Made by a program: the position numbers and the translations under genes. Source: Limonium bicolor (Eukaryota > Streptophyta > Magnoliopsida > Caryophyllales > Plumbaginaceae). Taken from it: DNA of 64,000 bases. Location of the stretch: assembly GCA_023374045.1 (NCBI GenBank), contig CM041777.1, forward strand, positions 480,167,594 to 480,231,593. Direction: 5' to 3'. The notes beneath the pieces are model-generated. The model was not told the DNA's origin. It was given only the letters and a program-made list of their open reading frames with translations, and did not search any database. This document shows positions 37,129 through 63,911 of this stretch, piece by piece; position 1 is the stretch's first letter, and the number at the start of each line of letters is the position of its first letter.

Positions 37129-37212
37129 GTGAGAACGCCTACCTCTTAAATTCAATTATGACCTTAACCTTTATACCGTCAGCTACTAACTTAAACTAAA
37201 TACTATGATCAG
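37129..37212 (+). other. Intron 3 of E2 gag (84 nt)
   Basis: GTGAGA...GATCAG, phase 1, directly after Pro-Pro-Lys. E3 gag has an 84-nt intron at the same position and phase. Confidence 0.85.
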
Positions 37213-45409: not shown

Positions 45410-45531
45410 AATACAGACGGAGCGCGGAGATTTTATTTCGTCGTAACGGAATTAGTATTTCTTTTAATTTCTTTGGCTGTCGTTTTGATTAGGTTAGATA
45501 GAGATAAATTAGAAGATAAAATTCTGTTTGT

Positions 45532-45538
45532 TATAAAA
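45532..45538 (+). promoter_or_regulatory. TATA box of the Athila 5' LTR
   Basis: TATAAAA, conserved at 56633-56639 in the 3' LTR; likely promoter of the element. Confidence 0.65.
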
Positions 45539-46406
45539 GAAAAGGCCAGCCAACGTGAGAGACATCTGGAGCGCACAGAATAATCACGATACAGAGAGAA
45601 TTAGTTTGAGAGCTTGGAGTCTGGTTTGGAGTTTGGAGCAGAGCACAGAAAGGAGTTCACCACGGAGACTGAACAGAGTTTCTTCTTTTTTCTCTATTAT
45701 TACTAAGCTTATTGTAAACATGTCAATGGCTGAGTAGTTCCCTTAGATTTCGGTTTGCTATGTATCCCTAAATTGACTATTCCTGTTCCTTTGTGATTTA
45801 ATTTAATTGAGTAAAGTTATTTTCCTTGCTTAATTTCTTTAATCGTTATAATTTGGCCAATTATAAGGATTAGTATTTTGTTAGCTTATATGTGACGACT
45901 GCGGCTTTCAATTGAATTCAGGAAAATAACCGGTTAGTTTAGAGACGGTAATTCCTCTAAATAGCTAATTGACTAATAAACTAGATTGTTCTTAAGGCGG
46001 TTAGTAAACAGTGGGTTCGTAACGAGAGTTAGAATTCGGTCTTTATTAACTAGTATTTGCTAAGCGGGAGACCGGAGGTAAATTATCTTAGTTCTAGGGT
46101 TTTACTCAGAATTATCTTTTAAATCACTTAGGGATAGGAATCACGGATTTAGGGTGCAGTAGTAAACCGGGATCTTCTTCTCCAAATCAGTTTCACAACA
46201 TTTATTTTTCCTGCTTATTATTGTTTCGCATGCCGTTTACAGTTTTAATTGTCATCAAATCAAACCCCAATTTCCTGTTTTATTTAATTCGGTTAGTAAA
46301 GATTAAACTAGACACATCGCCTCCTCTGGTTCGATACTTAGGGATTACTCTCTATTAAAACTTGCTAGAATTGACCGGTACACTTGCCGTTAGGTTTTAC
46401 CCAACA

Positions 46407-46879
46407 AGTTTTTGGCGCCGTTGCCGGGGAGGCACGGTTATTTAGTTTAGTCTTTATTTCGTTTTCTTTTTTATTTATTTTTGTTCGTTTAATTTCTTTA
46501 TTTTAATGTTCTGTTTCATTCGATTTTGGTTGTTTTACTTTTCAGTTTTTCTGTTTTTAATTTTCTTATTGTTTTGTTTAACGTCAGATTTTATTTAGTT
46601 TAGTTATTAGGATAGCTTTATTATTTTAGTATTTTATCTTTGTTCTGTTTTGATTTCTGTCTAGATTTTGTTTTAGGTATTCTTTTATCTTTTAGATTTT
46701 ATTTCTGATTTTATTCCTTTATTTGAATATTCTGTGCTTAGTAGTTAGGAAATTTTATCTGCATATTTTTGTGGGTTAAATTCTTTTATCTTTTTTGATT
46801 TTCTGTTATTTTATTCTAATTACTACTGCTTCCCTTTTAATTTGCGCTATTATAGTTTCAGTTTACTAACTCTCGGTTT
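46407..46879 (+). other. Athila leader with tRNA-Asp primer binding site
   Basis: TGGCGCCGTTGCCGGGGA at 46413-46430 is complementary to the 3' end of plant tRNA-Asp(GTC), the usual Athila primer. The rest is a T-rich leader without coding motif. Confidence 0.92.
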
Positions 46880-48736
46880 ATGGTCAAAACCCGTTCTGCA
46901 GGAGAACCAGAGTTCGAGCTCAATCTTGAGATCGAGAGATTCGCAAGACAACTTCGAAGAGACTTGAACCTGGATCCACCAGTTGAGGAGAAGGTGCTCG
47001 AACCACCTGTTGGTGAAGAGGTTCCGGAAGTTCAACCACCAGTGAATATGGCGAACAACGAGAGACAGATGAGGGACTACACCCGTCCAAGTGTTGAAGG
47101 GTTGGTGTCGCCAATTGTGATTCCAGCATTGCCAGCAGGAGTGCAGTGGCAGTTCAAGACTCACTATGTGACCATGGTGATGAACGCGCCTCAGTTCAGC
47201 GGGACGGTTACTGAAGATCCGAATGTCCATCTCACTACATTCCTGAGATTGGTAGGAGCGTGTTCGACACCAGCTTCGCAGGAGGTGGCCCGGCTCACTC
47301 TGTTTCCATTCTCTCTGAGGGATAGAGCCGCTGAGTGGTTGAACTCGTTGACGCCTGACAGTATCACCAGTTGGACCGAGCTGGCTAATGCATTCTTAGC
47401 AAAGTACTTCCCACCCTCTCGGATGCTGACCATGAGAGGAGAGATTACAAACTTCAAACAGTTTGCTGGTGAGTCCTTGTCTGAAGCTTGGGAGCGTTTT
47501 AAGGGAATAGTGAGGAAGGTACCACATCACGGTCTAGGTGAAGAGGTTATACTGCAGTCCTTTTACAAGGATTTGGATCCGTCTAGCCGGTTGTTGGTTG
47601 ATACTTGTGCTGGAGGAAGTTTGATGGAGCTGCCTATTACACGAATTAAGGAGTTGTTAGATACTATCACTACAGCAGCGAATCAGTGGGGAGGTACAAG
47701 AGCAGGAGAAGCTGCACCGAAGAAACCAGCTGGGGTTTATGAAGTAGATTCAAACACTTTCTTGGCTGCCAAGATAGAGGCAATGTCGAAGCAGTTTGAG
47801 CGTATGTGTGCAGTTATGAACCCTCAGTCCAGTGCAGCAGCTCCTGAGGTTTATCCACCGTGCGAGTACTGCGGTAGAGCTTCTAACATGTGCCAGTGTT
47901 CTCCACCACAAGAAGAGGCAGCGAACTATGTTGGTAACAGGCCGGGTAATTACTTTGGGAATCAAGGAAATCCGGGTTATCAAGCTCAGCAGCAAAACCG
48001 TTACCAAGCTGGTGGTAACAACAATTACAATCAGAGGCCTCAGCAGCAGTACAATCCTTCCTATCAGAAGCAGCCACTGCAGAATCAGCAAGCACAAAAT
48101 TCAGGTGCTGGAGCGTCTTCTAGTATGGATGCAGTTCTGGCCAGGATGAATGATTTCATCTCAGTGAATACGAAGAAGTTTAATGAGCTGGAAGCTTTCA
48201 ATCAAGAGCAAAGAACCTTCAACAATGATCAGAGGACATTCAATAGGAATATCGAGACTCAGCTGTCTCAGATATCTCAGCAGTTAGCTCAGCGTCCTTT
48301 GGGTTCCTTGCCTAGTCAGTCGGAGCAGAATCCGAGAGAGCATGCCAAGGCTATCACGTTGAGGAGTGGTACACAGCTTGACCCGGTGGTCCCTGAAGTT
48401 GAGGTCCCTCTCCCCAATGTTGAGCAGGATAAGAAACTGCACCAGCAGGTTCCCAGGAGGAGCCACCAGCTGAAGAGGAGGTGGCAATTAGCAAGACTAC
48501 TGACTTCCACACCTCCACGACGCGCAGTTGCTGAAGCGCCAGTTCCTTTTCCAAACCGGTTGAAGAAGAGGGACTTGGATGAGCAGTTTGGTAAGTTTTT
48601 GACTATTTTTAAGAAACTGACCATTAACATTCCTTTTTCTGAAGCTTTGAAGCAGATGCCAATATATGCGAAGTTTATGAAGGACATCCTGTCCAACAGA
48701 CGGTCCTTAGTGGAGAAGGACTGTGCAGCTTACTGA
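46880..48736 (+). CDS. gag: Athila gag (618 codons)
   Basis: Structural protein of the Athila-type element. The ATG at 46880 follows the leader; the frame is open for 618 codons. The retrotransposon gag domain spans roughly residues 80-250 (FSLRDRAAEWLNSL, LAKYFPPSRMLTMRGEI, LSEAWERFKGIVRKVPHHG). After it come a Cys-rich knuckle-like patch (CEYCGRASNMCQC, about residue 330), a Gln/Asn-rich stretch (370-420) and a C-terminal stretch (FGKFLTIFKKLTINIPFSEAL) that in this clade leads into protease. The stop at 48734-48736 seems premature, because protease-like sequence follows in other frames. This is a well-preserved gag in an otherwise decayed element. Confidence 0.93.
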   Translation: MVKTRSAGEPEFELNLEIERFARQLRRDLNLDPPVEEKVLEPPVGEEVPEVQPPVNMANNERQMRDYTRPSVEGLVSPIVIPALPAGVQWQFKTHYVTMVMNAPQFSGTVTEDPNVHLTTFLRLVGACSTPASQEVARLTLFPFSLRDRAAEWLNSLTPDSITSWTELANAFLAKYFPPSRMLTMRGEITNFKQFAGESLSEAWERFKGIVRKVPHHGLGEEVILQSFYKDLDPSSRLLVDTCAGGSLMELPITRIKELLDTITTAANQWGGTRAGEAAPKKPAGVYEVDSNTFLAAKIEAMSKQFERMCAVMNPQSSAAAPEVYPPCEYCGRASNMCQCSPPQEEAANYVGNRPGNYFGNQGNPGYQAQQQNRYQAGGNNNYNQRPQQQYNPSYQKQPLQNQQAQNSGAGASSSMDAVLARMNDFISVNTKKFNELEAFNQEQRTFNNDQRTFNRNIETQLSQISQQLAQRPLGSLPSQSEQNPREHAKAITLRSGTQLDPVVPEVEVPLPNVEQDKKLHQQVPRRSHQLKRRWQLARLLTSTPPRRAVAEAPVPFPNRLKKRDLDEQFGKFLTIFKKLTINIPFSEALKQMPIYAKFMKDILSNRRSLVEKDCAAY

Positions 48737-49559
48737 GAGCGTTTCAGCTGTGCTTTCGAAGAAGCTTCCCTAAGCTTGATGATCCAGGTACTCCGGTCAT
48801 ACCTTGCGCGATAGGTAATGTGAATTGTGGTAAGGGTTTATGTGACTTAGGTGCAAGTATTAATCTGATGCCTTATCTTATGTATTTGAAGCTTGGCTAG
48901 GAGAAGTGAGCCAACTCGAATTACTTTGCAACTAGCTGATAGGTCGATTATCCCTACCTAGAGGTGTGGTTAGAGATTTAATTGTTTCAGTTGGTAACCT
49001 TTGCTTTTCCTACTGACTTTGTTATTTGGAATGGAGGAAGAATAAGGTAGTACCACTATTTCTAGGTGACCATTCATGCGTACAGCAAGGACCCTTATTG
49101 ATGTTTGAAGGAGGGAAGATTATACTGCGTTTACATGATGAGCAGATTGTCTTTGACATGACCAAGGCTGCCACTCACCCTTCTGATGTTCATGCCTGCT
49201 TTAGTTTTGGATTGTATTGACACTTTGATATGCAGGATTATTCTTACAGCCCCACGAGCTGGATTTTTGCGTTGGAGAAGTGTTTGGTGGTTTCCATAGC
49301 GTGACACTTCATGTGATGACTCTTGAGGTTTTTACTGCAGAGCGTTTCAGCTCTCTGCTGGGAGGCCATATAGGAAGAAAACAGGATCGAGGAGGAGGAG
49401 CCGCTGGACCGAGTTTCCAAAGACACTAGCTTCCTTCTGGGAATCACCAGCCTCTCTTGAGCTTAAACCGCTTCCTAGTCATCTTAAATACGCTTTCCTT
49501 GTTCCTCCTACTGATTTACCTGTTATTAGATCTAATGCTTTGAACTGATGCACAGGGGA
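48737..49559 (+). pseudogene. Athila protease remnant and decayed linker
   Basis: Just after the gag stop the frames carry protease-like sequence, with the catalytic triplet seen as DLGASINLMP near 48845-48875. Frameshifts and stops break it repeatedly. From about 48950 to 49559 only scattered protease/RT-linker sequence can be discerned. Not functional. Confidence 0.7.
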
Positions 49560-50318
49560 AGCATTGTTGCAGATTTTGAGGAGGAAACAAAGAGGCACTA
49601 GATGGTCCATTTGCTGATATCAAAGGCATTGCTCCGACATTCTGCACTCACCGCATTTATCTTGAGGGGATACAAGCCGTTGAGACAGCCCCAGCGGCGA
49701 CTGACAACCCGCAACATGAAAGAGGTAGTCAGAAGGAAGGGTTTATCAAGCTACTGGATGCAGGTATAATCTATCCAATCTCTGACAGCGAGATGGTAAG
49801 TCCCACTCATGGTAGTACCCAAAAGAAAGGGGGTTTAACTGTTGTCCTAATGATAAAGGTGAATTAATTCCTCAGCGTTACTATTACTGGGCATAGAGTT
49901 TGATTGATTATAGGAAGTTAAAAGGCCGCCACTAGGAAAGATCACTTCCCCTTCCATTCATTGATAGATGCTAGAGAGGCTTGCAGGACAAGAATATTAC
50001 TGTTTCTTAGATGGTTACTCTGGTTATTTTCAAATTCCAATTGCTAAGGAGGACCAAAAAGAAAACTACTTTTACATGGTCCATATTGTACTTATGCTTA
50101 CCGTCGCATGCCTTTTGGTTTATGTAATGCACCTGGTACTTTTTCAAACGTTGCATGACTGCTATCTTTGCTGATTTTATTGAAAGTGCATCGAAGTTTT
50201 TATTGGAGATTTTCTGTTTTTGGACCAAACTTTTGATGCATGTTGAAAGACTTGGATTTGATCTTAGCTAGATGCAGGGAGACTAACTTGGTGGCTCAAT
50301 TGGGAGAAGTGCCACTTC
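49560..50318 (+). pseudogene. pol: Athila reverse transcriptase N-terminal half, decayed
   Basis: Fragments of RT in several frames: KPLRQPQRRLTTRN near 49672-49712, LLDAG.IYPISDSEMVSP near 49750-49803, and LERLAGQEYYCFLDGYSGYFQIPI at 49971-50042. The catalytic FxDD region (about 50195-50235) is out of frame. Many stops make this RT inactive, in contrast to the open frame that follows. Confidence 0.85.
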
Positions 50319-52358
50319 ATGGTGCAGGAAGGCATCGTGCTCGGTCACAAGATTTCTAAGAAGGGGATCGAGGTGGACAAGGCCAAGGTTGAAGTCAGTG
50401 AGCAGTTGCCACCACCTTCTTCGGTAAAGGATGTTCAAAGTTTTCTCGGTCACGCAGGTTTTTATAGGCGTTTTGTTAAGGATTTTTCTAAGATCTCTAA
50501 GCCTCTTTGTGATTTATTACTTAAGGATGCTAAATTTGAGTTTACAAAGGAGTGCTTAGATGCGTTTAAATTGCTCAAAGCTAAATTGATTTCTGCACCT
50601 ATTATTGTTGCTCCTGATTGGTCGTTGCCTTTTGAGATTATGTGTGATGCAAGTGACTACGCATTGGGAGCAGCTTTGGGTCAGAGGCATGACAAGGTAT
50701 TGAGGATAGTCTACTACGCGAGTAAGACTATGAATGAGGCACAGAAGAACTACGCCACAACGGAGAAGGAGCTGTTGGCGATCGTCTTTGCTTGTGACAA
50801 GTTTCGACCGTACATCATTGGCAGCAAAGTCATCGTGCATACCGACCATTCCGCTCTCAGGTATCTCTTTGGAAAGATTGATGCTAAACCTCGTTTGATC
50901 CGTTGGATTTTGCTTTTGCAGGAATTTGATATTGAGATTAGAGATAAACCTGGGGCGCAGAATGGGGTGGCGGATCACTTATCCCGTATGGAGGTTCCTG
51001 ACGATGGCAGGCCAATCAATGAGTATTTTCCTGATGAGTATGTCTTCATGATCGGCCATTCGACGGACCCTTGGTACGCTGATATTGCCAACTACCTAGC
51101 CAAGGGTATTATTCCTCCAGAGCTATCGTATCAGCAGAAGAAGAAGTTCTTCTCCACAGTCAAGCACTACCTTTGGGACGACCCGTTTCTGTTCAAGGTA
51201 TGCGCAGATGGTATGATACGTCGTTGTGTTTCTGAGGGTGAGGCTAGAGACATCCTGACACACTGCCATTCTAGAGAAGCGGGGGGTCATTTTGGACCGG
51301 CTAGGACAGCCGCGAAAGTTTTGGAGGCTGGCTTCTTCTGGAAGAATCTGAATAAGGACTGTTATCAGTTCGTTTCCACATGCGACCAATGTCAGAGGCA
51401 AGGGAATTTATCCAGACGTCATGAGATGCCATTGAATTCGATCCTGGAGGTTGAGCCGTTCAATCTGTGGGGTATTGATTTCATGGGGCCGTTCCCATCT
51501 TCCCAAGGTAACCTTTACATCCTGGTTGCTGTGGATTACGTTACCAAGTGGGCGGAGGCGATAGCAGCACCGACCAATGATGCAAGAGTGGTACTCAAGT
51601 TTCTAAAGAGGAATATATTTACCCGTTTCGGTGTTCCACGAGCGATCATCAGTGACGGGGGTACACATTTCTGCAACAAACAGTTTGAGGCTCTTCTACA
51701 GAAATACGGTGTGCGACATAAGGTTTCTTTACCGTATCATCCACAGACGAACGGGCAAGCCGAGATCACCAACAGAGAAATTAAGTGGATACTGCAGAAA
51801 TCTGTTACATCTTCGAGGCGAGATTGGTCCCTTAAGTTGGATGACGCCTTGTGGGCATACCGCACTGCATTTAAAACGCCCTTAGGTATGTCCCCGTACA
51901 AGTTGGTTTTTGGCAAGGCGTGTCACTTACCTGTGGAGCTAGAGCACAAGTCTTTTTGGGCCCTCAAGGCACTGAATTTTGATCTGAAAAAGGCCGGTGA
52001 GAAGCGTAAGTTACAGCTGTGTGATCTCGAGGAATTTAGAGAGGAAGCTTATGAGAACGCCAAAATTTACAAGGAGAAAACAAAGAAGTGGCATGATAAG
52101 TTATTGGTCAAACGCGAGTTTCACGTTGGAGACAAGGTTCTTTTATTCAACTCCCGTCTGAAATTGTTTCCAGGGAAGCTAAAGTCTCGTTGGTCTGGAC
52201 CGTTTACAGTGACAAATGTCTTGCCCTATGGAGCTATCGATTTAATCAATACAGAAGGAGAAACATTCAAAGTCAACGGGTCTCAGCTGAAGCATTATCT
52301 CAGTGGTGACGTTGCTGAAGTCCATTCGGTGATCACGTTCTTTGATCCTCCATACTGA
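50319..52358 (+). CDS. pol: Athila pol 3' part: RT end, RNase H, integrase (679 codons)
   Basis: An open frame from the RT thumb to the pol end. The first ATG (50319) is internal to RT, not a natural start. RNase H shows [29 protein letters not shown] and VADHLSR, giving all four acidic catalytic positions. Integrase shows the HHCC zinc module ([20 protein letters not shown]), then the DDE core with Asp in WGIDFMGPF, Asp in IISDGGTHF and Glu in [11 protein letters not shown], and a C-terminal region ([20 protein letters not shown]). No chromodomain, as expected for Athila. The frame is open although upstream RT is destroyed. Confidence 0.93.
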
Positions 52359-52608
52359 TTTTCCAATGCATGGTCTAGCCAAAGACCGAAAAGACGGGCG
52401 GCTGGCTGGGAGACAACCCAGTTTTGTGAGTTTTATTATTTTTGTTTTTGTTTATTTCTCGTAGGTTTTAATGTTTTTCATTCTTTATTTTTGGGCTAAC
52501 GTGCTTATTAGACATGTTTTGTCTAGTTTTACATGATTTTTAAGGTGAATTCAGGAGTTTGGAGGAACGTCTGTCATCTATATGAGTTTCTGGCCACTCT
52601 TAAGGGCT

Positions 52609-52855
52609 GTCCTGGTTTGAAGATGGGTTTACAACCCGGACCAACAGCTGGGCGACGTTACTGGAACGATTTTGATGTCATCCGGGTTTGCTCTCTGGTT
52701 TGCAACCTGCACCAGGTTGGCGCACTACTCACTGGCACGATTTTGATGTCATCCGGGTTTGAGGAAGGGTTTGGAACCCGGATCACCTACGCGGTGAACT
52801 TTCTGTCTCATTTTTGATGTCATCCGGGTTTGAGGAGAGGTTTGAAACCCGGATC
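52609..52855 (+). repeat. Palindrome array inside Athila, between pol and the 3' ORF
   Basis: Four units of TCCGGGTTTG / AAACCCGGA with the ATTTTTGATGTCATCCGGG spacer, the same arm sequence as the Athila LTR array but different spacers. The second unit is degraded (CAACCTGCACC). It ends about 460 bp upstream of the 3' ORF start. Confidence 0.88.
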
Positions 52856-53314
52856 ACACTGCTTGCGGAAAAAAAAGAACCGCGCTTCTAATCCCTAATC
52901 TATCCCTCCTTCAACCTCACGCCGCTCCAACCCCGACCTCGCCTGTGTTTTTCCCCCATTGCTCCAGACCCAGGTTTGCTTCACCACTGCACCACCCATT
53001 TTTTCTCCCTCGCCATTCCCGTCGCCTGGTGCTCCTTCCCCCATCTCATTGCTCCACTTCACCATCTCCGAACTCACCCCAAACCCGCGCCACCATTTTC
53101 CTCGCCTCAGCCTAGTCTCCCGACTTTGCCCCACCACCACCACACTCCCGACCTTGCCCCATTGCCGGTGCCACCGTCCTCATCTTATTGCTCATTCACC
53201 ACCTCCCTCGCCACACCTGTCCCGCCGCCCAAATTTGCACCACGACATCACCACCTCCCTTGCCAGTCCCGAGCTCACCCCGTCATCGTCTTCGAATTTT
53301 TCTGATTGGTTAGT
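52856..53314 (+). other. CT-rich spacer before Athila 3' ORF
   Basis: Pyrimidine-rich, Pro/Ser/His-coding in several frames with no domain. It may be the leader of the downstream ORF; no TATA box is seen. Confidence 0.45.
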
Positions 53315-54589
53315 ATGCCTCCGAAGCGCACGAGACGTTCCACCGCTGCGGGTGCTTCTTCATCGGCTGCGCCACCTGCACCAACACAACCGGTCCAATA
53401 TCGAGAATCAGTGCGTGCCGATTTCATTAGCGATGCCGCCTTTGATTGGTACAACGTCAAGGACCGGAAAATTATTCCGGAGAGGTCAGTGTCTGAGGAG
53501 TTAATTAATGAATTTGATTTACAAACTATGTTTGCTGCTAAGGGTTGGGGCGGCTTGTTGCGTCTTGGTGGGGGGTGTTACTACCCAAGATTGGTTAAGT
53601 TGTTTTATGCTAATGCTGAGAAGGAGGATGAGCGTGATGTAATTAGCGCGTGGATCAAAGGGAGATACATCGAAATTACTCATAGGGTGGTTGATGAGTA
53701 CTTTGGAGTGCAAGATGTTTTTGATAACAATGTGCTTAGGGAACGTAGGAAAAATTATGAAAATGATAAGAGACGGGCGAAGGAGCATTATCTGAGGTTG
53801 GTGGTGAATAACCCTGAGGTTCCGAACCGTCAACAACGGTCTTCAAGGGATAAGCAGGTCGTGACAGGGGACAAATTGCAGACTCCGATTGAGAGGTTGC
53901 TTCTGGCCGTTATTATGCATAATGTCCGCCCGAGAGAGTGTGCTGACTTGAACGCTGTGGATTGTTTCTTTATGCGCCATCTGCTGGATGATGAGTTCTC
54001 TCGCGGCGCCTGTCCTATTATTTTCTCTGCTGCTGTTAGTAATCATATTTTAACGTATCAGGATGTGGATCACCTCTCTCTTTGCTCCCCACATTTTCTG
54101 CAGTATCTCTTTGAGAAGGAGAGGGTGGATTTCAGTGATGAGCGGCCTCAGCATTCCGCTCCTCCTCTGGACATGACAGCGATGCATCGTTTTCAATGGG
54201 AGAAGGTAGGAGATGGTTGGATTAAGCGTCGCCGTGCCCGACCGGGTGAGAGAGCTGCCCGAGCTGCTGGTGCTGATGGGGCCGGGCCTTCACAGATTCG
54301 GGGAGATGGTGGACCTGCCGTAGCGCCGACGCAAGATTTTGAGGAGCTCATGATAGAGTTTCGAGATTGGCAGGGGGTGTGTACTGCCCGCTTTGATCAG
54401 TTCGGCTCGCGCCTTGACGATCTGTCCACACAGGTTCAGAACTATGGAGTTCGCCTGTCATCTTTGGAGGCGCGTCGCCACGCTGCTGAGGTTCGCCAGG
54501 ATGCGCGGATGGCTGAGTACGATACACGCTTTGCCCGTATGGAGGCATGGCATCTTCAGCATGGGTCACAGCTTCCACCACCTTCCTGA
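53315..54589 (+). CDS. Athila 3' ORF, putative plant transposon protein (env-position ORF)
   Basis: The third gene of Athila-type elements, at the position of env. The ATG at 53315 (MPPKRTRRSTAAG) opens 424 codons. It has a basic, low-complexity N-terminus, then a domain of about residues 30-180 with YYPRLVKLFYAN, VISAWIKGRYIEIT, VVDEYFGV and LLLAVIMHNVRPRE. This is the pattern of the 'putative plant transposon protein' family. A Gly/Ala/Arg-rich linker and a heptad-like C-terminus (FDQFGSRLDDLSTQVQNYG) follow. I see no signal peptide or membrane segment, so an envelope role is not supported. The frame is uninterrupted. Function unknown. Confidence 0.85.
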   Translation: MPPKRTRRSTAAGASSSAAPPAPTQPVQYRESVRADFISDAAFDWYNVKDRKIIPERSVSEELINEFDLQTMFAAKGWGGLLRLGGGCYYPRLVKLFYANAEKEDERDVISAWIKGRYIEITHRVVDEYFGVQDVFDNNVLRERRKNYENDKRRAKEHYLRLVVNNPEVPNRQQRSSRDKQVVTGDKLQTPIERLLLAVIMHNVRPRECADLNAVDCFFMRHLLDDEFSRGACPIIFSAAVSNHILTYQDVDHLSLCSPHFLQYLFEKERVDFSDERPQHSAPPLDMTAMHRFQWEKVGDGWIKRRRARPGERAARAAGADGAGPSQIRGDGGPAVAPTQDFEELMIEFRDWQGVCTARFDQFGSRLDDLSTQVQNYGVRLSSLEARRHAAEVRQDARMAEYDTRFARMEAWHLQHGSQLPPPS

Positions 54590-55998
54590 TTTTGGAGTTT
54601 GGGTTGTTTCGTTCTCTCTCTTTTCAGATCTTTTGATGTGTTTGCTTCTGAGATATTTTTCTTTTGGGTTGTAATTCTATCTTACTTTGGATTCGGCTAC
54701 TACTTGTTTCATTACGACCATCGCTGCACTATGATGTATCACTTATACACTTACTGTTTATCTGCACGTTCGTGTTGGCTTTGGTTGTATTTCTTGAGCT
54801 ACAGGTCTGCCTTTTGATGCGTGTGAGGTATTGAGGAAATTTAAAGGAAGCTCTGTCAAAATTTATGCAGAATTCAACACCCCGCTGTTTTACATAAGTG
54901 TGAGGACGTTGTCCTCACCATACCCCAGGGGCGTGATTTTCTAACTTCTTTTATTTTTCAAACGTTGTTTTCTGGAAATTTTTGTTTTCATTCCATCTTA
55001 ATCATTTTCATGAAGCAATGAGGGCATTGCTAAGTTTTAAGTGTGAGGAAGGGAAATTGCACATACTCATATTCATGTTCAATTTCATTCGAATGTGCTA
55101 ATTTTGACCAATTTTCTTTCAAGACAATCATTCCATTTGCACAATATTTTTGTTGGCCCTCAAAAAAAAAATATTTTGGTTGCATAACATACCTGAGTCT
55201 TATCCAGTGGTTGGTTAAGTTGGTTTGGAACACCGCACGAGTAGCACTAGTTCTTATGAGGTCGGAGGTGGAAAATAGTTGTGGGAATTCTGGTTGCACT
55301 TCTTGTATGTACAGTTTTAAACTAATGTTGGTCTATTTCTTCTTTAAAAAGTTAAGCCTATTAGTGCAACTATTCGATTTTGATTTCACTTGGGGACTTG
55401 GGAATGATTATTGAATGAAAGGAAGGAAGGACAAAGGCAAGGTACTCCTCTAATCGAACTTTTAGCCCAGAAAACAGGCCTCGCCCATTTGGTAATTAAG
55501 TCCTCGGGGTGCCTCATCACCCATCTACCTAAGGTCATCTGATCTGGGATAGAAGACCCAACACCGCTACATGAATGGAGAGAAAAGTCTGAGGGATATA
55601 AAAGAGAAAGTTAATGCTTGTTTAGAAAGTTGAAGAAATTTGCTAATTTCAAATGCAAAGTGCAAAATCTTTCTTGATTATGAGTACGTGGTGATGAAAG
55701 GTAATGGAATAAGATATTACTTCTCACCCCTTGTCGTCCATGGATTGTGGAAAATTAATTGGAAAGTAGTCCCTGAGTGAAATTGGAGTCAGTGTTTTTA
55801 CTATGTGCCTTAAGCTCTTGCAAAATACTTCTCAATTCACTGTTTATGAAAACCTGCAAGTGTGGATCATTGTTCTCTATGACTGCTTTTCATTATTAGA
55901 TCTCCTTGTGCATAGTTCTGAACTGACGGCTCCCTTCTGTAAGACTTTAGTATGTTTCTATTTGCTTGAGGGCAAGCAAAGATTAAGTGTGAGGAAGT
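54590..55998 (+). other. Athila 3' non-coding region with repeated polypurine-tract-like sites
   Basis: No convincing gene. Contains a perfect hairpin GTGAGGAC-GTT-GTCCTCAC (54900-54918) and three TAAGTGTGAGGA sites (about 54895, 55037 and 55983). The last directly precedes the 3' LTR and is the working polypurine tract. Confidence 0.75.
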
Positions 55999-57502
55999 TG
56001 ATAAGTCAGGAATTTGTCTAAGTTTACTAGACTAATTCATGCTTAATTTTCTACATTATGACATTAACTTTCCTCTTTAATGCTTTAATTACTCTTCATT
56101 GTTATATTTGTCTCCAATGATTGATTTCATATGTTTTCAGGATAAATTACTCAACAAAGTGCTTGAATGAAGATTTTAGAGGTTAGAGCAACATGGGAAG
56201 TCAAACCAGAGTCAAATACAGATTTTCATTCATCACTGTTGCACTTTATAGAGGGTCCGGGTTTGCATCTGGGTTTATAAACCCGGATCCCCTCGTCGCA
56301 GAACATTCTGCCTAATTTCAGGCTTGTTCCGGGTTTGAGGAAGAGTTTGGAACCCAGAACATACCAGGGCGAGACATTCTGCCTAATTTCAGGCTTGTTC
56401 CGGGTTTGCATATGAGTTTGAAACCCGGAACAATACAGACGGAGAAGCTACTGCCTTAAATTTCATGTGTTCCGGGTTTGCATAAGGGTTTGAAACCCGG
56501 AACAATACAGACGGAGCGCGGATATTTTATTTCGTCGTGTAACGGAATTAGTATTTATCTTTTAATCTCTGTTGGCTGTCGTTTTAGATTAGGTTAGATT
56601 AGAGATAAATTAGAAGATAAAATTCTGTTTGTTATAAAAGAAAAGGCCAGCCAACGTGAGAGGGGACATCTGGAGCGCACAGAATAATCACGATACAGAG
56701 AGAATTAGTTTGAGAGCTTGGAGTCTGGTTTGGAGCAGAGCACAGAAAGGAGTTCACCACGGAGACTGAACAGAGTTTCTTCTTATTCTCTATTATTACT
56801 AAGCTTATTGTAAACATGTCAATGGCTGAGTAGTTCCCTTAGATTTCGGTTTGCTATGTATCCCTAAATTGACTATTCCTGTTCCTTTGTGATTTAATTT
56901 AATTGAGTAAAGTTATTTTCCTTGCTTAATTTCTTTAATCGTTATAATTTGGCCAATTATAAGGATTAGTATTTTGTTATCTTATATGTGACGACTGCGG
57001 CTTTCAATTGAATTCAGGAAAATAACCGGTTAGTTTAGAGACGGTAATTCCTCTAAATAGCTAATTGACTAATAAACTAGATTGTTCTTAAGGCGGTTAG
57101 TAAACAGTGGGTTCGTAACGAGAGTTAGAATTCGGTCTTTATTAACTAGTATTTGCTAAGAGGGAGACCGGAGGTAAATTATCTTAGTTCTAGGGTTTAC
57201 TCTGAATTATCTTTTAAATCACCTAGGGATAGGAATCACGGATTTAGGGTGCAGTAGTAAACCGGGATCTTCTTCTCCAAATCAATTTCACAACATTTAT
57301 TTTTCCTGCTTATTATTGTTTCGCATGCCGTTTACAGTTTTAATTGTCATCAAACAACCCCAATTTCCTCCTGTTTTATTTAATTCGGTTAGTAAGATTA
57401 AACTAGACACACGCCTCCTCTAGTTTTAGATACTTAGGGATTACTCTCTATTAAAACTTGCTAAATTGACCGGTACAACTTGCCGTAGGTTTTATCCCAA
57501 CA
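55999..57502 (+). mobile_element. 3' LTR of Athila-type element
   Basis: 1,504-bp copy of 44907-46406 with small indels and substitutions. Ends CCCAACA. Palindrome array at 56254-56503, TATAAAA at 56633-56639. Confidence 0.95.
56254..56503 (+). repeat. Palindrome array in the Athila 3' LTR
   Basis: Four units as at 45162-45409. The spacer before the third unit is the full ATTTCAGGCTTG form, where the 5' LTR has a shortened variant. Confidence 0.9.
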
Positions 57503-57614
57503 TGTGGACACAAGTGGAATTAATCAACACCTGCTCTTTTTGATAAACCAACCATCATACCTCCGTGTCTCTAATACACTTCTATTGATACATGATCTTT
57601 GGATTTATACTTTC

Positions 57615-58348
57615 TTAGGTAAGGTTCAGGCGTCCTGGTTTCGTGTGTGGCATTTTATTGCCGGCGGTGCCGTATTCAGCTTGATCTTGTTGATACCGTG
57701 ATACAGCAACCTTGAATTTCCACCCATGATTAGGACATCTCCTGATCTCAATACCAATTCTGTGCGAGGTCCACGCTTCTGTTCGCTATACAGAATACGA
57801 CGTCATCACCAATGGACCAAGACACTATGGGCACTCCTTGTTTAAGAGATTCCGCTTCGTCCTTGTCTTGGTGTAACCCAAGTCGTCCTTCTTTCTCATA
57901 GAAGTTGACGATACAAGGTCCCTTCAAGTGCGGGGATCGGATCATATTTGCATTGTTGTGCAAGTTCTACTGCTTGTGTGACAAGTGTTTGAAATTCTGG
58001 TGGTATTGTCGGTGGCGTTGCTCCGTCATGTGTTCGTGTCTCTTGGTATGTCTTGGTATAAGGATTCCAGTCCTTTCCCAAGCACATCATCTTCAGCTTC
58101 ATCTTCGCTCCACCGGGGAATTCGGGTGTATAAAATCCTCCTTGACCCGTTCCTAGTTCGTTGCATCGTCGAAGGATTGAGATTTGTGCTTCGGGTGTCA
58201 GGTATCCCCTTAACAAAATCATACCTGGTCGGATGACCTGACACCGTTCGTTGGTGTAGTAGTGGTTGGTGATGTCGGTCTCTTCTTGATTCAGGTTTAC
58301 CGGTATCGGATAACAGATACTAAAGCTTCCTATGGTTACAAATTTCAT
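57615..58348 (-). pseudogene. AlkB-like (ALKBH1-type) 2-oxoglutarate/Fe(II) dioxygenase captured in E3
   Basis: AlkB-family enzymes oxidatively remove methyl groups from nucleic acid bases. The first open frame (58348-57896) has RPGMILLRGYLTPEAQ, GGFYTPEF, GAKMKLKMMCLGKDWNPYT and GATPPTIPPEF, the pattern of the ALKBH1-like group. A frameshift follows. The second frame (to 57748) holds NFY, the iron ligands HQD (57873-57865) and GVPIVSWSIGDDVVF. Another shift leads to SGDVLIMGG and LLYHGI (distal His 57700-57698), and a further one to PGRLNLT and a stop (57617-57615). The first Arg of the R-x-N-x-T-x-R signature is present; the second is lost. No intron-like gap is evident. It is on E3's coding strand between gag and protease, so it is probably a captured host cDNA rather than a resident gene. 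Three shifts make this copy inactive. Confidence 0.85.
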
Positions 58349-58634
58349 CTACTGTGAGTACTAGTTTCAACTACTTCTTTTCATGCTCATTACATACTCC
58401 AATTCAGTTACTCATGCATTCATTCAAACAAATACTCCAATACTTAGGCATGCTTCTCAAGGATTCAAGGTTAAGATAATTACTTGGGCCGGACTTAGAA
58501 CCGGACCCATCACGGTCTATGACATGCAAGACCGGCTGCCTCTGAGGTGCACCCCTCTGAGGACCTCGGGATCCCTGTCCCTGTGGTGCCTGCTGGGCCG
58601 GTGCATCGCCAGATGCAACCTCCTTGCCTTCCCT
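58349..58634 (-). other. E3 gag-downstream linker, Gln/Pro/Gly-rich, and segment before the AlkB frame
   Basis: After the gag TAG the same frame continues for dozens of codons with Gln/Pro/Gly-rich sequence (APAQQAPQGQGSRGPQRGAP), so it is probably translated in the parent. The last ~100 bp up to ACTCACAG could be an intron end before the AlkB ATG. I could not find a donor with matching phase. Confidence 0.5.
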
Positions 58635-59956
58635 CTACTTGTAGCTTTGGAAATTCCCCTTTGGCTTGGCATTCTCTGGGCATCTATTAGCTGTATGGCC
58701 GGTTTTCTGGCAATTGTAGCACTTGATTTCTCTCCCGTAGCAATCCTTGCCGGGATGGTCCTGATTGCACTTTCTGCACACATAGGTGCGGCCATCGGAG
58801 AAGGTTTTGGTGAAACCGGAGCCAGAACCTAAGGTTTAGAGGGTTAGCACATGTGTGTGTGGATATACTAGATATGATGCTTGTATGAATACGAATTAGA
58901 AATAGAAGTTACCCTTAGGTGGGTGTGATCTCAGTGGCTTCGCAGCCACCGGTGCAGATGACCCTAGCTGAAGAATCTCAACCGGGCTGCCCTTCTCAGT
59001 ATGGGCACTGCTCTCACTTGGGAATTTCTTTTGGGATTGCTGAAAGAAATTCCCTTTCTTCTTTTTCCAGCTTTTACCCTGGTTCTGCTCCTCGGCATTG
59101 GTATTCTTACCATTAGCCTTGCGCTTCAGCGCGGTTTCTTCATCCCGTAGTTGGCAAGTGATCTCAACGCGAGAAGCCGCGTGATAACACTCCTGAAGTT
59201 TCAGGTATTAGCCGGGATTCTCACTTAAAAAGGAGGCAAGAAAAAGATTTAAGGAATGGAAATGGCACCAAGGGTTAAACTGATATTTACCTGAAGGGAG
59301 GTAAATCGAGTGTAGCCCATACCGTACCGAAGGCGATGGCTCAGACCGCCATAGAAGTGATCGACCAACACCTGGCCGGTGTACCCAAGGTCGGGTAGAA
59401 GACGGATGATAGAAGTGAAGGTTCTGTAGTACTCATCCACAGACATCTTGTCTGTCATCTTCAAGGCATCCAGCTCTAGCCTTTTCATAGTCTTTACGTG
59501 CTCCGGATAGTACTTGGAACGGAGGAGAGAGGCAAAGGATTCCCAGTCGAAAGTAGGATCATTGACGTGCTCATTCTTGATTAGCTTCCACCAATCCATG
59601 GCTGCATCTTTCAGATAGTAGGCTGCAACTCTAACTCGAACTCCAGCAGGACATTCGAGGGTCTCAAATGCAGTCTCCATTTCGGAGATGTAAGCTTCAA
59701 GTTTAGCAGGATCACTCTCGCCTCTAAAGCATGGAGGACGGAGATCTGCGATAGCTTTTACCCAGTTTACTTCTCTAGGTGGAGGGGGAGGGATTGGTCC
59801 CGCTTGAGTTTGTTGGTTTTGTTGGTTCTGTTGCATAGCAGTAATTACTTGTGGTAGCATCTGCGCTACCATGGCGGCGACGATCTCAGCTATCGTCTGC
59901 GCGCCTGGTCCATCATTGGCCCCTCCTTTAGGGCGACCTGGACCTCTTCCTGACAT
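58635..59956 (-). CDS. gag: gag of E3, three exons
   Basis: Tekay-like chromovirus gag. I chose the ATG at 59956 (MSGRGPGRPKGG) over an upstream in-frame ATG because it matches E2's MSRGTRGRG start. Exons 59956-59291, 59192-58913 and 58828-58635 are 666, 280 and 194 nt and join in frame to 379 codons plus stop. It shows a Gln-rich stretch, PPCFRGESDPAKLEAY, AAMDWWKLI and LLRSKYYPEHVKTMKRLE of the gag domain, then a Lys-rich region and two zinc knuckles (CRKCNQDHPGKDC and CYNCQKTGHTANRC). The final TAG (58637-58635) is followed by an open, compositionally plausible continuation. It may be a nonsense mutation or a natural gag end. Confidence 0.9.
58829..58912 (-). other. Intron 2 of E3 gag (84 nt)
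   Basis: Minus strand GTAACT...CCTTAG, phase 1, after Pro-Pro-Lys. Same position, phase and length as intron 3 of E2. Confidence 0.85.
59193..59290 (-). other. Intron 1 of E3 gag (98 nt)
   Basis: Minus strand GTAAAT...CTTCAG, phase 0, between Leu-Gln and Glu-Cys-Tyr, at the same codon boundary as intron 1 of E2. Confidence 0.85.
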
Positions 59957-60177
59957 CTGAATATTTAACATTCGCATTAGACTTCATAGCATGTGACTTT
60001 GAGACACCATAGGTCACGAATTTAAGCAAGGTATCGTTCCTAAGAACGTCAAGGGTATCCGTTGTTAACAACGGTCGTTCCTAGTTAGGTTTCTAAGTAT
60101 CTGTCTTAAGACGGTTGAAATCCTAACTCGGTAATCCCCTATGCTCAGTAACTATGGACATCAAAGCGTTACTACGT
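59957..60177 (-). other. E3 leader between PBS and gag
   Basis: Untranslated leader. Ends ATTCAG directly before the ATG, which again resembles a splice acceptor. Confidence 0.5.
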
Positions 60178-60189
60178 GCTCTGATACCA
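60178..60189 (-). other. Primer binding site of E3 (tRNA-iMet)
   Basis: Minus strand TGGTATCAGAGC. ATCAGAGC can pair with GCTTTGAT downstream (60167-60160), with one G-T pair. Confidence 0.95.
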
Positions 60190-60689
60190 CTTTTTGTAAA
60201 ACCTCATCTGTTAATCCTATGCTTACCGTCCAATCATCCCTTAATTCTATCAGTACGCAGCGGAAGACTACTACTTACTACGGCGGGTGGTACAACGCCG
60301 CTAACCGCCCATACGGCTAGCTAGGCTTACCTTACTTACAGTCACGGTCTGATGATCATAGTATACCGAGCTCCTACATTACTTACTAGTAACGAAAACA
60401 TAACATACTTACATTCCTGGATCACCGAGTATTTAAAGTATATTCGATTACATTCCCTTTTCCAATCTACCAAAAGAATGAGTTTAATCAACTGCTCATC
60501 TATACCAATGCTCCATCCTTTCGCTATCCAAAAAGGTGTACCCCATGGTACACCGGCTAATCAAAAATCTACAGCCGTGTACTACTTAGTACACCATTCA
60601 TAATTCATTGTTTACAACCAAAAAGAAGACAAAAGAAATAGAACTAAGTCTTCAACATCTTCATCCCTCTCTTGCACCTGCATTCATAT

Positions 60690-60785
60690 TAAAAACGGGG
60701 CCTCAAGGGGCTCAGCATAAAGCTGCATATGAACTCCGCATATACCGAGTGCTAACAAGGGCACGCTGACTATTTGACGTCCACT
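60690..60785 (-). ncRNA. Multi-hairpin segment of the E3 5' LTR
   Basis: Copy of 37806-37895. One C-to-T change weakens the terminal stem (CCTCAAGGGG on the plus strand). Confidence 0.5.
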
Positions 60786-61852
60786 AAACATGCGATTCAT
60801 TACTTTCATACATACATGCTTTGCATACAACATACATACATATACAATACGTTATACATTCCAAGGCGACAATACAATAGCATACGCACAATACTTACCT
60901 TCACCGGGTTAGCCAATTTACGCATCCGGGTTAATCGGAATGCTTTTTACTCTTTTACTCATTTCACATTACTTGCTCTTACTTTTACTTACTTACTTTC
61001 TTTTACTTACTTACTTACTCATTCTTACTTACTTACTTTTACTCATGTTAAGTCGGTATGACCTCCGGCCCGGGGACTACACCGTCCCACCACCGGGATT
61101 TACTTGACTCACCAATCCAGGATGCTACCCATTTAAGGGGTTTGGGCCGCGGACCAGTTTAAGAGTCAGGAATCGGATCCAACCTCTTGTGTCTCCTCAT
61201 CCTCACGCGTGGCCGAAACTATATCGGACTTCTACTCATTCCAATTTAATTACCAATTTAAGTTAGATTGGTTAGCTTGTTAGGAATCATATAGAAGTCC
61301 AATCACAATCACATTTGGTCACAATACAATACAACATACATACACACACTCATATTCATCCATACATTTCATGAATTATACAAACAACGATTTAAGAAAA
61401 TATACACAACATACAACACTACATATTCACAAGTAAGCATAATAACTCCGATTCGTGCATTTATCTTATTTGGTGATCAATTAGCACACAACACACAAAT
61501 CAGAGTAACCAAGGTAGCATACGGGGCATGAGGAATTCATACCGTTCACCGTTGTACTTGTATCCGACGTTCCTCCGGTGTTCACAAATCAAATCCTATG
61601 ATATACTTACAATCGAGTGATTAATCTAACTATCATTAACTTAACTCGATTACTCTTACGTTTCCTAACTCATAATTACTAAGCCTTTGAAGTTCTTATA
61701 CTTACACATTGTTTACTTTCTTCAAGTTTGTTTCCTTACTTTACATTGGTATTCTCATGCATATATGTACATATGTATGTGGGTATACATACATATATAT
61801 ATACACACTTACTATAGTTATACATATATATTTTTTTTGTAAGTTACGGGCC

Positions 61853-62037
61853 GTCCGACCCACCGTCCGACCCAAGCCCTGGGTCGGACCCTTCCAGTAA
61901 GTTTTAGTCCCGTTACCCAAGCTCCGTCCGACCCATGTCCGACTCACGGCCCCTGGGTCGGACCGTTCCAGAATGTTTACTCTCGTTGCTTAAGCTCCGT
62001 CCGACCCTCGTCCGACTCACGGCCCCTGGGTCGGACC
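61853..62037 (-). repeat. Palindrome array in the E3 5' LTR
   Basis: Three GTCCGACCC/GGGTCGGAC units, copy of 38945-39130 with a few changes. Confidence 0.9.
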
Positions 62038-63911
62038 GTTCCAGATTGTGCTACAGACCTTATTTTCTTTCCCATTTTCACCCATTGTTTCCCCAATCTT
62101 CCTACATACATCCTTACATGTTTTAGCACTACTTAAACACTCTAAATCATGTTATTTCACTCCCTAATCCATTTCACAATCCTATACTACTTTATATGCA
62201 TAATTTTCCAAGTTTCAACTCAACACTCACATTGTTTCTTCCCTTATTACATTATGCTACAGATTTTTGTTCTGACACTCCCCATCTATAGTTCCCTCTT
62301 CTAATGTCATTTCTAATACTTCTAATGCATTACAACTATATTAACTATCTCTCCCAATCTACCTTCTATCTTTCTCTATCAAAATCTGTTACAACCTACA
62401 TTATTCACCTAGTTTCTAGTGCACTAGGTGTTCTCATCCTATGTAAATTTTGCCATAGTCTCCCCTATATTTTTTTGCATTCTCACCACATTGTTTCACT
62501 CACATCTTATTACCCAAATCTCCTGTTTTCAATAGCCTCAATATACATAGCTCTTATAACCAAATACCACCACAAAACACTCTTAAAATTCCTGCACTCA
62601 ATATCCCAATCCCAACTATGTTTACACAAGTTTTACATGTCTTTTAAAGGTTCTAAACATTTGTTTCCTCCTACACATTATACTACCAATACATTACCAT
62701 TTTACAATGCCCATATTAACTTCTAAAAAAAATCTGTTACATACATATATATAAGGCTAACAAAGGTGAGTATCATTACCTTGTTTCTCTTCTAGTTTCT
62801 TTTCTTCCTCTCGCTTCTTCCTTCTTCCTTATTTCTCTCTCTACCGGTTGTAGTAATCCAAATTCTCTAACACTACAACCCATTCATATATCCACACCAT
62901 TTTAATACACCATCTAACCCTAACCATTATTTAAAGCTTAATGCACATTTTAGGGTTTAGGAATTTCATTACCTTGCAAGGATGTGGGCGATGCTTAGGA
63001 TAGCTCAAGAACAATGTTTCCACTCCTCCAACAAAGCCAAAATCGGCTGGGTACAAAAGGAGCAAGCAAGAGTTTTAGCTCAAATTTCGTTTTGCCCTTA
63101 AGGCTAGAAAAACAATGGAGTTTCAAGAAGCTTTTTACCTCAAAAGAACAAGGAGAAGAAGGTGGTTCTAGTGGTGGTCTTGAAGCTCCAAATGCTCCAT
63201 ACCCATGGAGATGAAAGTTCTTGTTTTCGAATTTTGGAAAGAGGGAAATACTCTCCTTGATGAGAGGATTCCAATGGTACAAGTTTTGTAATTTTTGGAG
63301 GAGATTTGAGGGAGTAACAAGAAGAGAGAAGATGGAGTTTTGTGGGTTTGCTCAAGCTTCCATGGCTATCGCATGGGGAAGAAGAAAAATAGAGAGGAGG
63401 AGGTGAGTGTATAAGTGAGTGAAGAGAATAGAATGGAGGAGAGAGAGTGGTAAAGTGAGGTGGGGTTTGCTTTATTACTTTTGTCTCATAGCATATTAGA
63501 TAAGTGAGGAGAGTGAGAGAGAGGCCCAAATCGGACACCCCACTGCACACACACACACTTGCATTTTAATTTTAAAAGTGGACACATAAGTTTTGGTTAT
63601 TTATGTTTCTACCCCACAACTTCCCGTTTTTGACAGTTTTTACTAATTTCTCGTTTTACTGATTTTATTGGTTCTAAAGCTTCACTAATATTTATTAATG
63701 ACCATTTAGTTGACCAAAATTGTTACGAGTCTATTTGACCCGCTTAAAGTCACGTTTTCCCGGTTACCTCGAAAAACGCGCTTTAAGGTTCGTTAGTGTT
63801 TTTAATCCGTTTTCTTCGGCATTTGTTCCCTCGTGATTATTTATGCATAATTAAGCTTCTAAATTACTTATTAGCCTAATTAATCACTATTTTTAATTAC
63901 GGGGTATTTCA

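What the first reader, a model, noticed from the sequence alone, without database searches (positions are those of the whole stretch)
57615..58348. Retrotransposon-borne AlkB (ALKBH1-like) dioxygenase between gag and protease
A recognisable 2-oxoglutarate/Fe(II) dioxygenase of the AlkB family sits inside a Tekay-type chromovirus, on its coding strand, between the gag zinc knuckles and protease. HxD, distal His and R-x-N-x-T are all visible. AlkB domains are known in some plant RNA viruses (flexiviruses), where they are thought to remove RNA methylation. One in an LTR retrotransposon would be a new accessory function, for example stripping m6A or m1A from genomic RNA. The copy is frameshifted, so only intact relatives could show selection.
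Basis: partly seen in the sequence, partly recalled or inferred. Interest (0 to 1): 0.93.

Follow-up and report, generated by a model that had tools for sequence, protein, structure and literature searches.

The report
Demethylase exon in a jumping gene
An abundant lineage of plant retrotransposons carries its own copy of a demethylase gene (AlkB type) between its capsid and enzyme genes, and selection has kept the protein intact, which suggests that these jumping genes use it against the host's chemical marking of nucleic acids.

Summary
An AlkB (2OG-Fe(II)) dioxygenase of the plant ALKBH1 type lies on the minus strand at 57615-58348, between the gag zinc knuckle and protease of a chromodomain Ty3/gypsy element. 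A younger Athila-like element (44907-57503) now separates it from protease. The window's copy is broken, but the source genome (2.92 Gb) holds many more. In two divergent sets read here (40 and 30 loci; 23 of each open over 240 codons or more) AlkB sits at the same place and is under purifying selection (dN/dS 0.17 and 0.18; gag 0.13-0.14, PR-RT 0.14; shifted-frame controls 0.96 and 1.73). Catalytic residues are almost invariant. Anatomy suggests that AlkB is a separate exon: a TAG stands at a fixed distance upstream, and 20 of 23 open frames in set 2 have no Met before the domain core although that part is conserved. AlkB in plant Gypsy elements is already known (orchid, Tat/Ogre-like, ALKBH5 type, active on m6A). 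This is an apparently independent case in another lineage, from another AlkB subfamily, at another site. Substrate and splicing are unproven; whether AlkB-free sister families exist was not learned.

The parts
60195..63911 (-). 5' LTR of the element (E3); target duplication CTGTT at 63912-63916 and 37304-37308
   Evidence: 97.2% identical to the 3' LTR; duplication checked; K2P 0.0167, 10 gap openings
60178..60189 (-). primer binding site TGGTATCAGAGC (match to the 3' end of plant initiator tRNA-Met is recalled)
   Evidence: sequence; same 12-mer just after the LTR in 7 of 8 other copies examined
59291..59983 (-). gag exon 1 (capsid), open frame; donor GT at 59290-59289, phase 0
   Evidence: PF03732 E 5.3e-15 (on the frame 59983-59249); donor GT in 40 of 40 copies; boundary checked
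59193..59290 (-). putative intron 1 (98 nt)
   Evidence: GT...AG, frame kept across it; acceptor AG 38 of 40; gag interrupted at the same place in a 41%-identical gag in this window
58913..59192 (-). gag exon 2; donor phase 1
   Evidence: dN/dS 0.139 in 36 copies; donor GT 40 of 40
58829..58912 (-). putative intron 2 (84 nt)
   Evidence: GT and AG in 40 of 40 copies; boundaries
58484..58828 (-). gag exon 3 with CCHC zinc knuckle; donor GT at 58483-58482, phase 1
   Evidence: PF00098 E 9.7e-7; donor 39 of 40
58349..58351 (-). TAG just before the AlkB frame, read here as its 3' splice acceptor
   Evidence: TAG is the upstream stop in 65 of 68 located copies (70 looked at); 24 nt before the F-x-I-C motif in 35 of 39 and 27 of 29
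57615..58348 (-). AlkB (ALKBH1-type) domain, frameshifted in this copy; 252 codons in most uninterrupted copies
44907..57503 (+). nested Athila-like element, not part of the system; splits AlkB from protease
   Evidence: LTRs at 96.7% (44907-46409 and 55999-57505 as aligned); GTGGA at 44902-44906 and 57504-57508
44870..44871 (-). putative acceptor AG of a gag-pol intron that would contain AlkB (58483 to 44870)
   Evidence: AG in 38 of 40 copies; phase agrees with gag exon 3; position
41489..44906 (-). protease, RT, RNase H, integrase and borderline chromodomain, broken by frameshifts and a stop
   Evidence: Pfam hits in four pieces read apart; RT, RNase H, integrase core and chromodomain pieces each under their own cut-off, protease (RVP_2) and integrase zinc-binding above it
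37309..41023 (-). 3' LTR

Best explanation
SHOWN: AlkB is a stable accessory gene of chromodomain-type Ty3/gypsy elements in this plant genome. It lies between gag and pol in two divergent groups of elements, its frame is open in many copies, and its protein is under purifying selection comparable to that on gag and pol. It is of the plant ALKBH1 type with a complete Fe(II)/2-oxoglutarate site. INFERRED FROM ANATOMY: AlkB is a separate exon inside a gag-pol intron. RNA that keeps this intron would end gag shortly past donor 3; removing it (gag exon 3 to the protease acceptor) would give Gag-Pol; joining the AlkB exon (phase 0) to an upstream phase-0 exon, of which gag exon 1 is the only one seen, would give an AlkB or capsid-AlkB protein. 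INFERRED FROM FAMILY KNOWLEDGE: the protein removes methyl groups from adenine in the element's own nucleic acid, most likely m6A or m1A on its RNA and less likely 6mA on its DNA. It would thereby blunt m6A-dependent sequestration or silencing of retrotransposon RNA.
For: Same-site copies: of 40 scored DNA matches (of 5745 first-look candidates) the zinc knuckle was found upstream in 36 and protease downstream in 39; the 40th is the window's own copy. Of 30 loci picked by P0003 (the best of 141 scored), the knuckle was found in 23 and protease in 28. Frame of at least 240 aa over AlkB: 23 of 40 and 23 of 30. dN/dS: 0.170 (0.111-0.253) in 36 copies, shifted frames 0.962 and 1.732, gag 0.131-0.139, PR-RT 0.139; set 2 0.176 (0.131-0.222) and its part before PGM 0.326 (0.186-0.551), 23 open frames used. 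Catalytic columns in 40 copies: first His, Asp and first Arg 40; distal His 39; second Arg 38. Clade: four window-family copies plus P0001-P0004, 100/100 support, apart from host ALKBH1. Fold of P0003: nearest OsALKBH1, TM 0.93 and 0.91 by target length. Exon: TAG position; no in-frame Met before PGM in 20 of 23 set-2 frames. Splice phases. Silencing background: review passages, PMC12786077 and PMC12973404.
Against: No transcript, protein or enzyme data. Splice-site dinucleotides are only somewhat better conserved than other GT (mean 33.9 of 40) and AG (33.8 of 40) in the same stretch. A more canonical CACAG before the AlkB ATG is rare in set 1. P0003 has Leu, not a stop, just before the part that aligns with the AlkB exon. 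Gag exon 3 and protease are in phase after removing the putative intron in 21 of 30 scored copies, 10 of 40 not scored; 10 of 30 are in phase without removal. In set 1 the part before PGM has dN/dS 0.585 (0.279-1.388), not clearly below 1, and 13 of 21 frames there begin with Met. Set 1 was picked by AlkB similarity, so its low AlkB diversity and low damage are biased. Plant ALKBH1 relatives named as DNA 6mA demethylases speak against an RNA substrate.
Confidence: 0.6

Rival explanations
1. The AlkB protein acts on the primer, not the genome: it removes m1A58 from the initiator tRNA-Met that primes minus-strand synthesis, changing where plus-strand strong-stop DNA ends or the fate of the tRNA.
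For: Primer site of tRNA-Met type (7 of 8 other copies; identity of the tRNA recalled). Human ALKBH1 has m1A-demethylase activity and its knockdown raises initiator tRNA-Met (passage of PMC9362929). m1A58 sets the plus-strand stop in HIV-1 (passages of PMC13191261). A capsid-AlkB fusion would be placed in the particle.
Against: Cells mutated in the m1A58 methyltransferase gave lower HIV-1 infectivity, so removal might harm the element. No substrate test. The fusion itself is inferred.
Confidence: 0.13
2. The protein acts on DNA: like its plant ALKBH1 relatives it removes 6mA from new element DNA or from host chromatin at the insertion site.
For: Closest sequence and fold is OsALKBH1; several hits are named DNA N(6)-methyladenine demethylase.
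Against: The names may be transferred annotation; the abundance and role of 6mA in plant DNA are debated (recalled). E. coli AlkB, the next fold match, acts on DNA and RNA (recalled).
Confidence: 0.15
3. AlkB is a passenger: one capture carried along by a successful family, without function.
For: The window's copy is broken; AlkB diversity is low in set 1, as expected if young, though set 1 was picked for it.
Against: dN/dS 0.17-0.21 in two sets and both together, dS up to 0.96; variants shared by two or more copies give pN/pS 0.15 against 1.14 and 1.85 in shifted frames; catalytic columns kept.
Confidence: 0.04
4. The 'element-borne' AlkB is a host ALKBH1 gene or fragment that lies next to gag by chance, or an assembly or gene-model chimera.
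For: Such a case seems to exist elsewhere: P0176 of Cinnamomum joins a gag fragment to a protein that groups with host ALKBH1.
Against: The same order gag-AlkB-PR in most of 70 loci on many contigs, and a clade apart from host proteins.
Confidence: 0.01

Closest known systems
AlkB-carrying Gypsy elements of Phalaenopsis orchids (Gypsy_Pa_2799; PMC9289625; abstract, introduction, methods, results and discussion read)
   Same: Plant Ty3/gypsy family at high copy number with a captured 2OG-Fe(II) AlkB domain, cofactor residues kept
   Different: Orchid RT falls in Tat next to Ogre, AlkB is ALKBH5-like, lies in a separate ORF2 (565 aa), PBS tRNA-Arg, gag-pol one ORF. Here: chromodomain element, ALKBH1-like, between gag zinc knuckle and protease, PBS of tRNA-Met type, gag with putative introns
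Plant ALKBH1 / OsALKBH1 (PDB 5xeg, 5xoi)
   Same: Closest sequence and fold; same HxD...H...R-x-N-x-T layout
   Different: Element copies form a separate, long-stemmed clade; most open frames are 252 codons, against 300 or more in many host proteins
Tekay chromoviruses with 5' additional ORFs (sunflower, maize, rice; PMC11728184, passages seen)
   Same: Tekay-type elements with a conserved extra protein
   Different: Those ORFs lie 5' of gag-pol; the sunflower one is largely disordered and matched no known domain; AlkB and dioxygenase occur 0 times in that paper's main text
Ogre elements with an intron in the gag-pol region
   Same: Intron within the gag-pol coding region (PMC9289625 says a putative intron separates Gag and Pol in Ogre)
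   Different: Ogre is in Tat and typically lacks the AlkB ORF; here two short putative gag introns plus one that would hold AlkB
AlkB domains of plant RNA viruses (Alpha-, Betaflexiviridae, Closteroviridae)
   Same: RNA-based parasite with an AlkB domain
   Different: Named in the discussion of PMC9289625; no sequence relation to the window's clade was tested

Membership tests
Plant ALKBH1-type AlkB dioxygenase | 2OG-FeII_Oxy_2 domain | tested here: met
   PF13532 in both pieces of the window copy; P0001 and P0003 complete domain
Plant ALKBH1-type AlkB dioxygenase | HxD, distal His and two Arg of the cofactor site | tested here: met
   His 40, Asp 40, distal His 39, first Arg 40, second Arg 38 of 40 copies by alignment column
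Plant ALKBH1-type AlkB dioxygenase | groups with plant ALKBH1 rather than other AlkB subfamilies | tested here: met
   best PDB match is OsALKBH1 by sequence and fold, ALKBH5 structures far lower; the trees held ALKBH1-type proteins only, so no tree against other subfamilies was made
Plant ALKBH1-type AlkB dioxygenase | demethylase activity | not testable with these tools
   no assay
Chromovirus (Tekay) LTR retrotransposon | gag-PR-RT-RH-IN order with a C-terminal chromodomain | tested here: met
   chromodomain 23.7 bits against a cut-off of 25.1, read as met
Chromovirus (Tekay) LTR retrotransposon | RT phylogeny places it in Tekay | not tested
   no reference RT set at hand
Chromovirus (Tekay) LTR retrotransposon | paired LTRs, target duplication, tRNA-Met-type primer site | tested here: met
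   the tRNA is recalled
Phalaenopsis AlkB-Gypsy family | ALKBH5-like AlkB | tested here: not met
   ALKBH1-like
Phalaenopsis AlkB-Gypsy family | AlkB in an ORF separate from a single gag-pol ORF | tested here: not met
   AlkB lies between gag zinc knuckle and protease
Phalaenopsis AlkB-Gypsy family | Tat/Ogre RT, tRNA-Arg primer site | tested here: inconclusive
   chromodomain and TGGTATCAGAGC speak against it; no RT tree was made

The most novel reading that the evidence does not exclude
A chromovirus lineage captured an ALKBH1-type demethylase, apparently long ago and independently of the orchid case, and wired it into alternative splicing: the AlkB exon sits in the gag-pol intron and is joined in frame to the capsid exon, so that the particle itself carries a capsid-AlkB enzyme that demethylates the packaged RNA or the primer tRNA-Met.
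Probability: 0.22. Interest if true: 0.88.

Novelty: new variant of a known kind. Interest (0 to 1): 0.74.

Why it matters
Two apparently unrelated Gypsy lineages, each with a different AlkB subfamily at a different site, would be convergent evidence that nucleic-acid methylation limits plant LTR retrotransposons. Reviews already link m6A to sequestration of ONSEN RNA and to heterochromatin silencing of retrotransposon RNA in Arabidopsis (passages). Here a large natural family with many open AlkB frames makes the question testable: which mark does the host use, and what does the enzyme remove? The gag introns and the AlkB exon, if confirmed, would also make the family a natural case of splicing control of Gag, Gag-Pol and an accessory enzyme.

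Tried and rejected
Viral collection: three scans, with the window piece, P0001 and P0003, gave no relative. GTDB genomes: one scan, none. Neither collection is one of plants.

P0176 (Cinnamomum, gag plus AlkB) was considered as a second gag-AlkB element and rejected: it groups with host ALKBH1 and has only part of gag.

The 5 kb downstream of the second gag of the window (36083-37308, + strand) were fetched (L049): no match to AlkB or protease better than E 1, so it says nothing about AlkB-free relatives.

A splice acceptor CACAG just before the AlkB ATG, first taken from the window copy, was dropped because most copies read CACCGTAG.

Errors of mine: gag exon 3 was counted in a wrong frame for stops (corrected). 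A note says 40 of 40 for the order; the motif counts are 36 and 39 of 40. A note repeats the tool's column that nearly all scored matches have a 252-aa open frame. Of the 30 loci that I read, 23 have a frame of 240 aa or more and 7 have 141-233 aa, so that column is not to be taken as 'intact'.

Not obtained: a genome search with protease DNA, to see copies without AlkB, did not complete; one with the zinc-knuckle piece did not complete either. The host ALKBH1 gene of this genome was not looked for. The DNA of P0001-P0004 could not be fetched, so their element context is inferred only from the clade; the N-terminal extension of P0003 also aligns, weakly, with the spacer before AlkB in three loci.

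Full report
Observation. The minus strand of 57615-58348 encodes an AlkB domain in pieces that lie in different frames. Both main pieces pass Pfam's gathering score for 2OG-FeII_Oxy_2, and the sequence match in the PDB is rice OsALKBH1. HxD, the distal His and R-x-N-x-T are present. This is not chance. A scan of the window with the 207 proteins then held found AlkB at this place; two single hits elsewhere, near 36000 and 59500, fall on gag (P0176 carries a gag part).

Element. The host element (E3 in the finding) runs from 63911 down to 37309. Its LTRs are 97.2% identical and differ by K2P 0.0167, about 0.6 million years at the recalled rate of 1.3e-8 per site and year. It has a CTGTT duplication on both sides and the primer site TGGTATCAGAGC at 60178-60189. 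Gag, zinc knuckle, protease, RT, RNase H, integrase and a borderline chromodomain are found. An Athila-like element (44907-57503, + strand, GTGGA on both sides) was later inserted about 0.1 kb beyond AlkB, so AlkB and protease, now 12.7 kb apart, were neighbours. The nested element's LTR divergence (0.0225) is nominally larger than that of E3 (0.0167), although it must be younger; with 33 and 61 mismatches I take this as noise.

Copies in the genome. A search of the source genome (2.92 Gb, 2686 contigs) with the 734 bases scored 40 of 5745 first-look candidates, at 93-100% over nearly the whole length and on contigs C1-C8. All 40 were read, 8 as given loci and 32 fetched. The zinc knuckle motif was found upstream in 36 of 40 and a protease motif downstream in 39 of 40, the exception being the window's own copy. 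A frame of at least 240 aa over AlkB is open in 23 of 40, and in 21 of 40 under a stricter rule with two motifs. A second search with P0003, a relative from an unnamed contig, scored 141 of 52095 first-look candidates, the listed rows all at E 4.6e-124 or lower and 68-74% identity. The 30 loci returned (the best 30) form a different, divergent set: only 8 of 30 could be matched by blastn with the window's AlkB, at 65-73%, and their gag exon 1 is 31-49% identical to E3's in protein (26 of 30 with a hit). In them the zinc knuckle was seen upstream in 23 of 30, protease downstream in 28 of 30, and an open frame of at least 240 aa in 23 of 30, nearly always 252. First-look candidates are word matches, not confirmed copies, so the copy number is not known. 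Both sets were found through AlkB, so the share of AlkB-free relatives is unknown.

Selection. Over 39 copies without the window's own, dN/dS of AlkB is 0.169. After dropping three near-duplicates (36 copies) it is 0.170 (0.111-0.253), with gag exons 0.131-0.139, PR-RT 0.139, and AlkB read in shifted frames 0.962 and 1.732. Variants shared by two or more copies, which mostly arose before the copies died, give pN/pS 0.15; singletons give 0.50. On open frames only, set 1 gives 0.190 (15 copies), set 2 0.176 (0.131-0.222; 23 copies, dS 0.48), both together 0.209 at dS 0.96. Catalytic columns are invariant or nearly so in 40 copies. Two cautions: set 1 was picked by AlkB similarity, so its low AlkB diversity (0.038 against 0.127 in gag exon 1 and 0.14 and 0.10 in the two introns) and low damage are biased. 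That AlkB-alike copies have unlike LTRs (pieces 71-91% identical to E3's in 8 copies) suggests recombination among families; this was not tested.

Relatives and origin. P0001, from an ENA contig without a name, is 65% identical to the window piece and was the only hit of the first search; P0002-P0004 (ENA, ENA, Logan) were found with P0001 and are its nearest relatives, ahead of named host ALKBH1 (best 120 of 2557 listed). With four natural family copies they form a clade at 100/100 support on a long stem within flowering-plant ALKBH1; the place of the stem is weakly supported and may suffer from its length (the clade was also found with the window piece alone). A model of P0003 (mean pLDDT 87) matches OsALKBH1 best, then E. 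coli AlkB. The source DNA of P0001-P0004 could not be read, so their element context is not shown.

Splicing anatomy. Gag is broken by two short GT-AG stretches (98 and 84 nt in the window) across which the frame continues; the four dinucleotides are kept in 40, 38, 40 and 40 of 40 copies. A distantly related gag in the same window (36083-37308, + strand, 41% identity) breaks off and resumes at the same two places, though it has other damage too, so these introns look old. A third donor at the end of gag exon 3 (39 of 40) is in phase with an AG before protease (38 of 40). Of 36 copies scored, the gag frame read on past this donor stops within 5-24 nt in 20, at 77 nt in 2, and before the donor in 14. 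AlkB would therefore lie inside a gag-pol intron. Directly before the AlkB frame stands TAG: in 65 of 68 located copies (of 70) the upstream stop is TAG, at an identical distance in 62 of 68. In set 2, 20 of 23 open frames have no Met before PGM, yet the 42 codons ending there have dN/dS 0.326 (0.186-0.551). A conserved coding stretch without a start codon right after a fixed AG is what a spliced exon looks like. Its phase (0) fits gag exon 1, not exons 2 or 3 (phase 1). In set 1 the part before PGM is less constrained (0.585, 0.279-1.388), and 13 of 21 frames begin with Met at the exon start, so set 1 may start there. The background conservation of GT and AG dinucleotides is high (means about 34 of 40), so splice-site conservation alone is weak evidence.

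Mechanism. Shown: a complete, selected, ALKBH1-type dioxygenase gene at one site in two groups of elements. Inferred: it demethylates adenine in nucleic acid of the element. For RNA m6A, the orchid element's enzyme is active in vitro (PMC9289625), AtALKBH9B frees ONSEN RNA (review passage, PMC12786077), and m6A on retrotransposon RNA feeds heterochromatin (review passage, PMC12973404). For m1A of primer tRNA, human ALKBH1 has m1A-demethylase activity and affects initiator tRNA-Met levels (passage, PMC9362929). For DNA 6mA, several of the plant relatives bear that name.

Known or new. Searches for AlkB with LTR retrotransposon (25 of 35 papers listed), with gypsy, retrotransposon and plant (16 of 16), with chromovirus (2 of 2), with Tekay (4 of 4), for 2OG-FeII with retrotransposon and gag (4 of 4) and for ALKBH1 with retrotransposon and plant (15 of 63) showed, by title and start of abstract, one research paper on an AlkB-bearing LTR retrotransposon, the orchid one, and a review that cites it. 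Two searches on additional ORFs led to PMC11728184 and PMC7264820, in whose main texts 'AlkB' occurs 0 times. The orchid paper screened 121 angiosperm genomes and found the domain only in Phalaenopsis. Only open-licence papers were searched. The present case differs in AlkB subfamily, position and gene structure and, by its chromodomain, in retrotransposon lineage. I file it as a new variant of a known kind.

Noticed in passing
36083-37308 (+) and 63917-64000 (+): A second, 41%-identical chromovirus-like gag, split by the insertion of E3 in its zinc knuckle, interrupted at the same two intron places as E3's gag.
   Followed up: yes
44907-57503 (+): Athila-like element nested in E3, with gag, RNase H-integrase and a 3' ORF matching Transposase_32 below its cut-off.
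   Followed up: partly
20941-24794: A solitary-looking LTR whose first part is 86-87% identical to E3's LTRs, inside another repeated sequence (20067-20940 and 24795-25915).
   Followed up: no
1-2713 and 14214-16917: A 98.9% identical pair of 2.7-kb repeats, probably LTRs, with a 72-bp tandem repeat inside.
   Followed up: no
set 1 loci (L002-L040) against L041-L048: Copies with nearly the same AlkB have LTR pieces only 71-91% identical to E3's and higher diversity on both sides of AlkB: possible recombination or spread of the AlkB module between families.
   Followed up: partly
P0176 (Cinnamomum micranthum protein): Predicted protein joining part of a gag to a host-like ALKBH1; likely a gene-model or exonised fusion.
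   Followed up: partly
C1:220805489-220837181 and C8:34784594-34810567 of the source genome: Neighbouring copies at 98.5% or more over 3.7 kb, probably local duplications rather than separate insertions.
   Followed up: no
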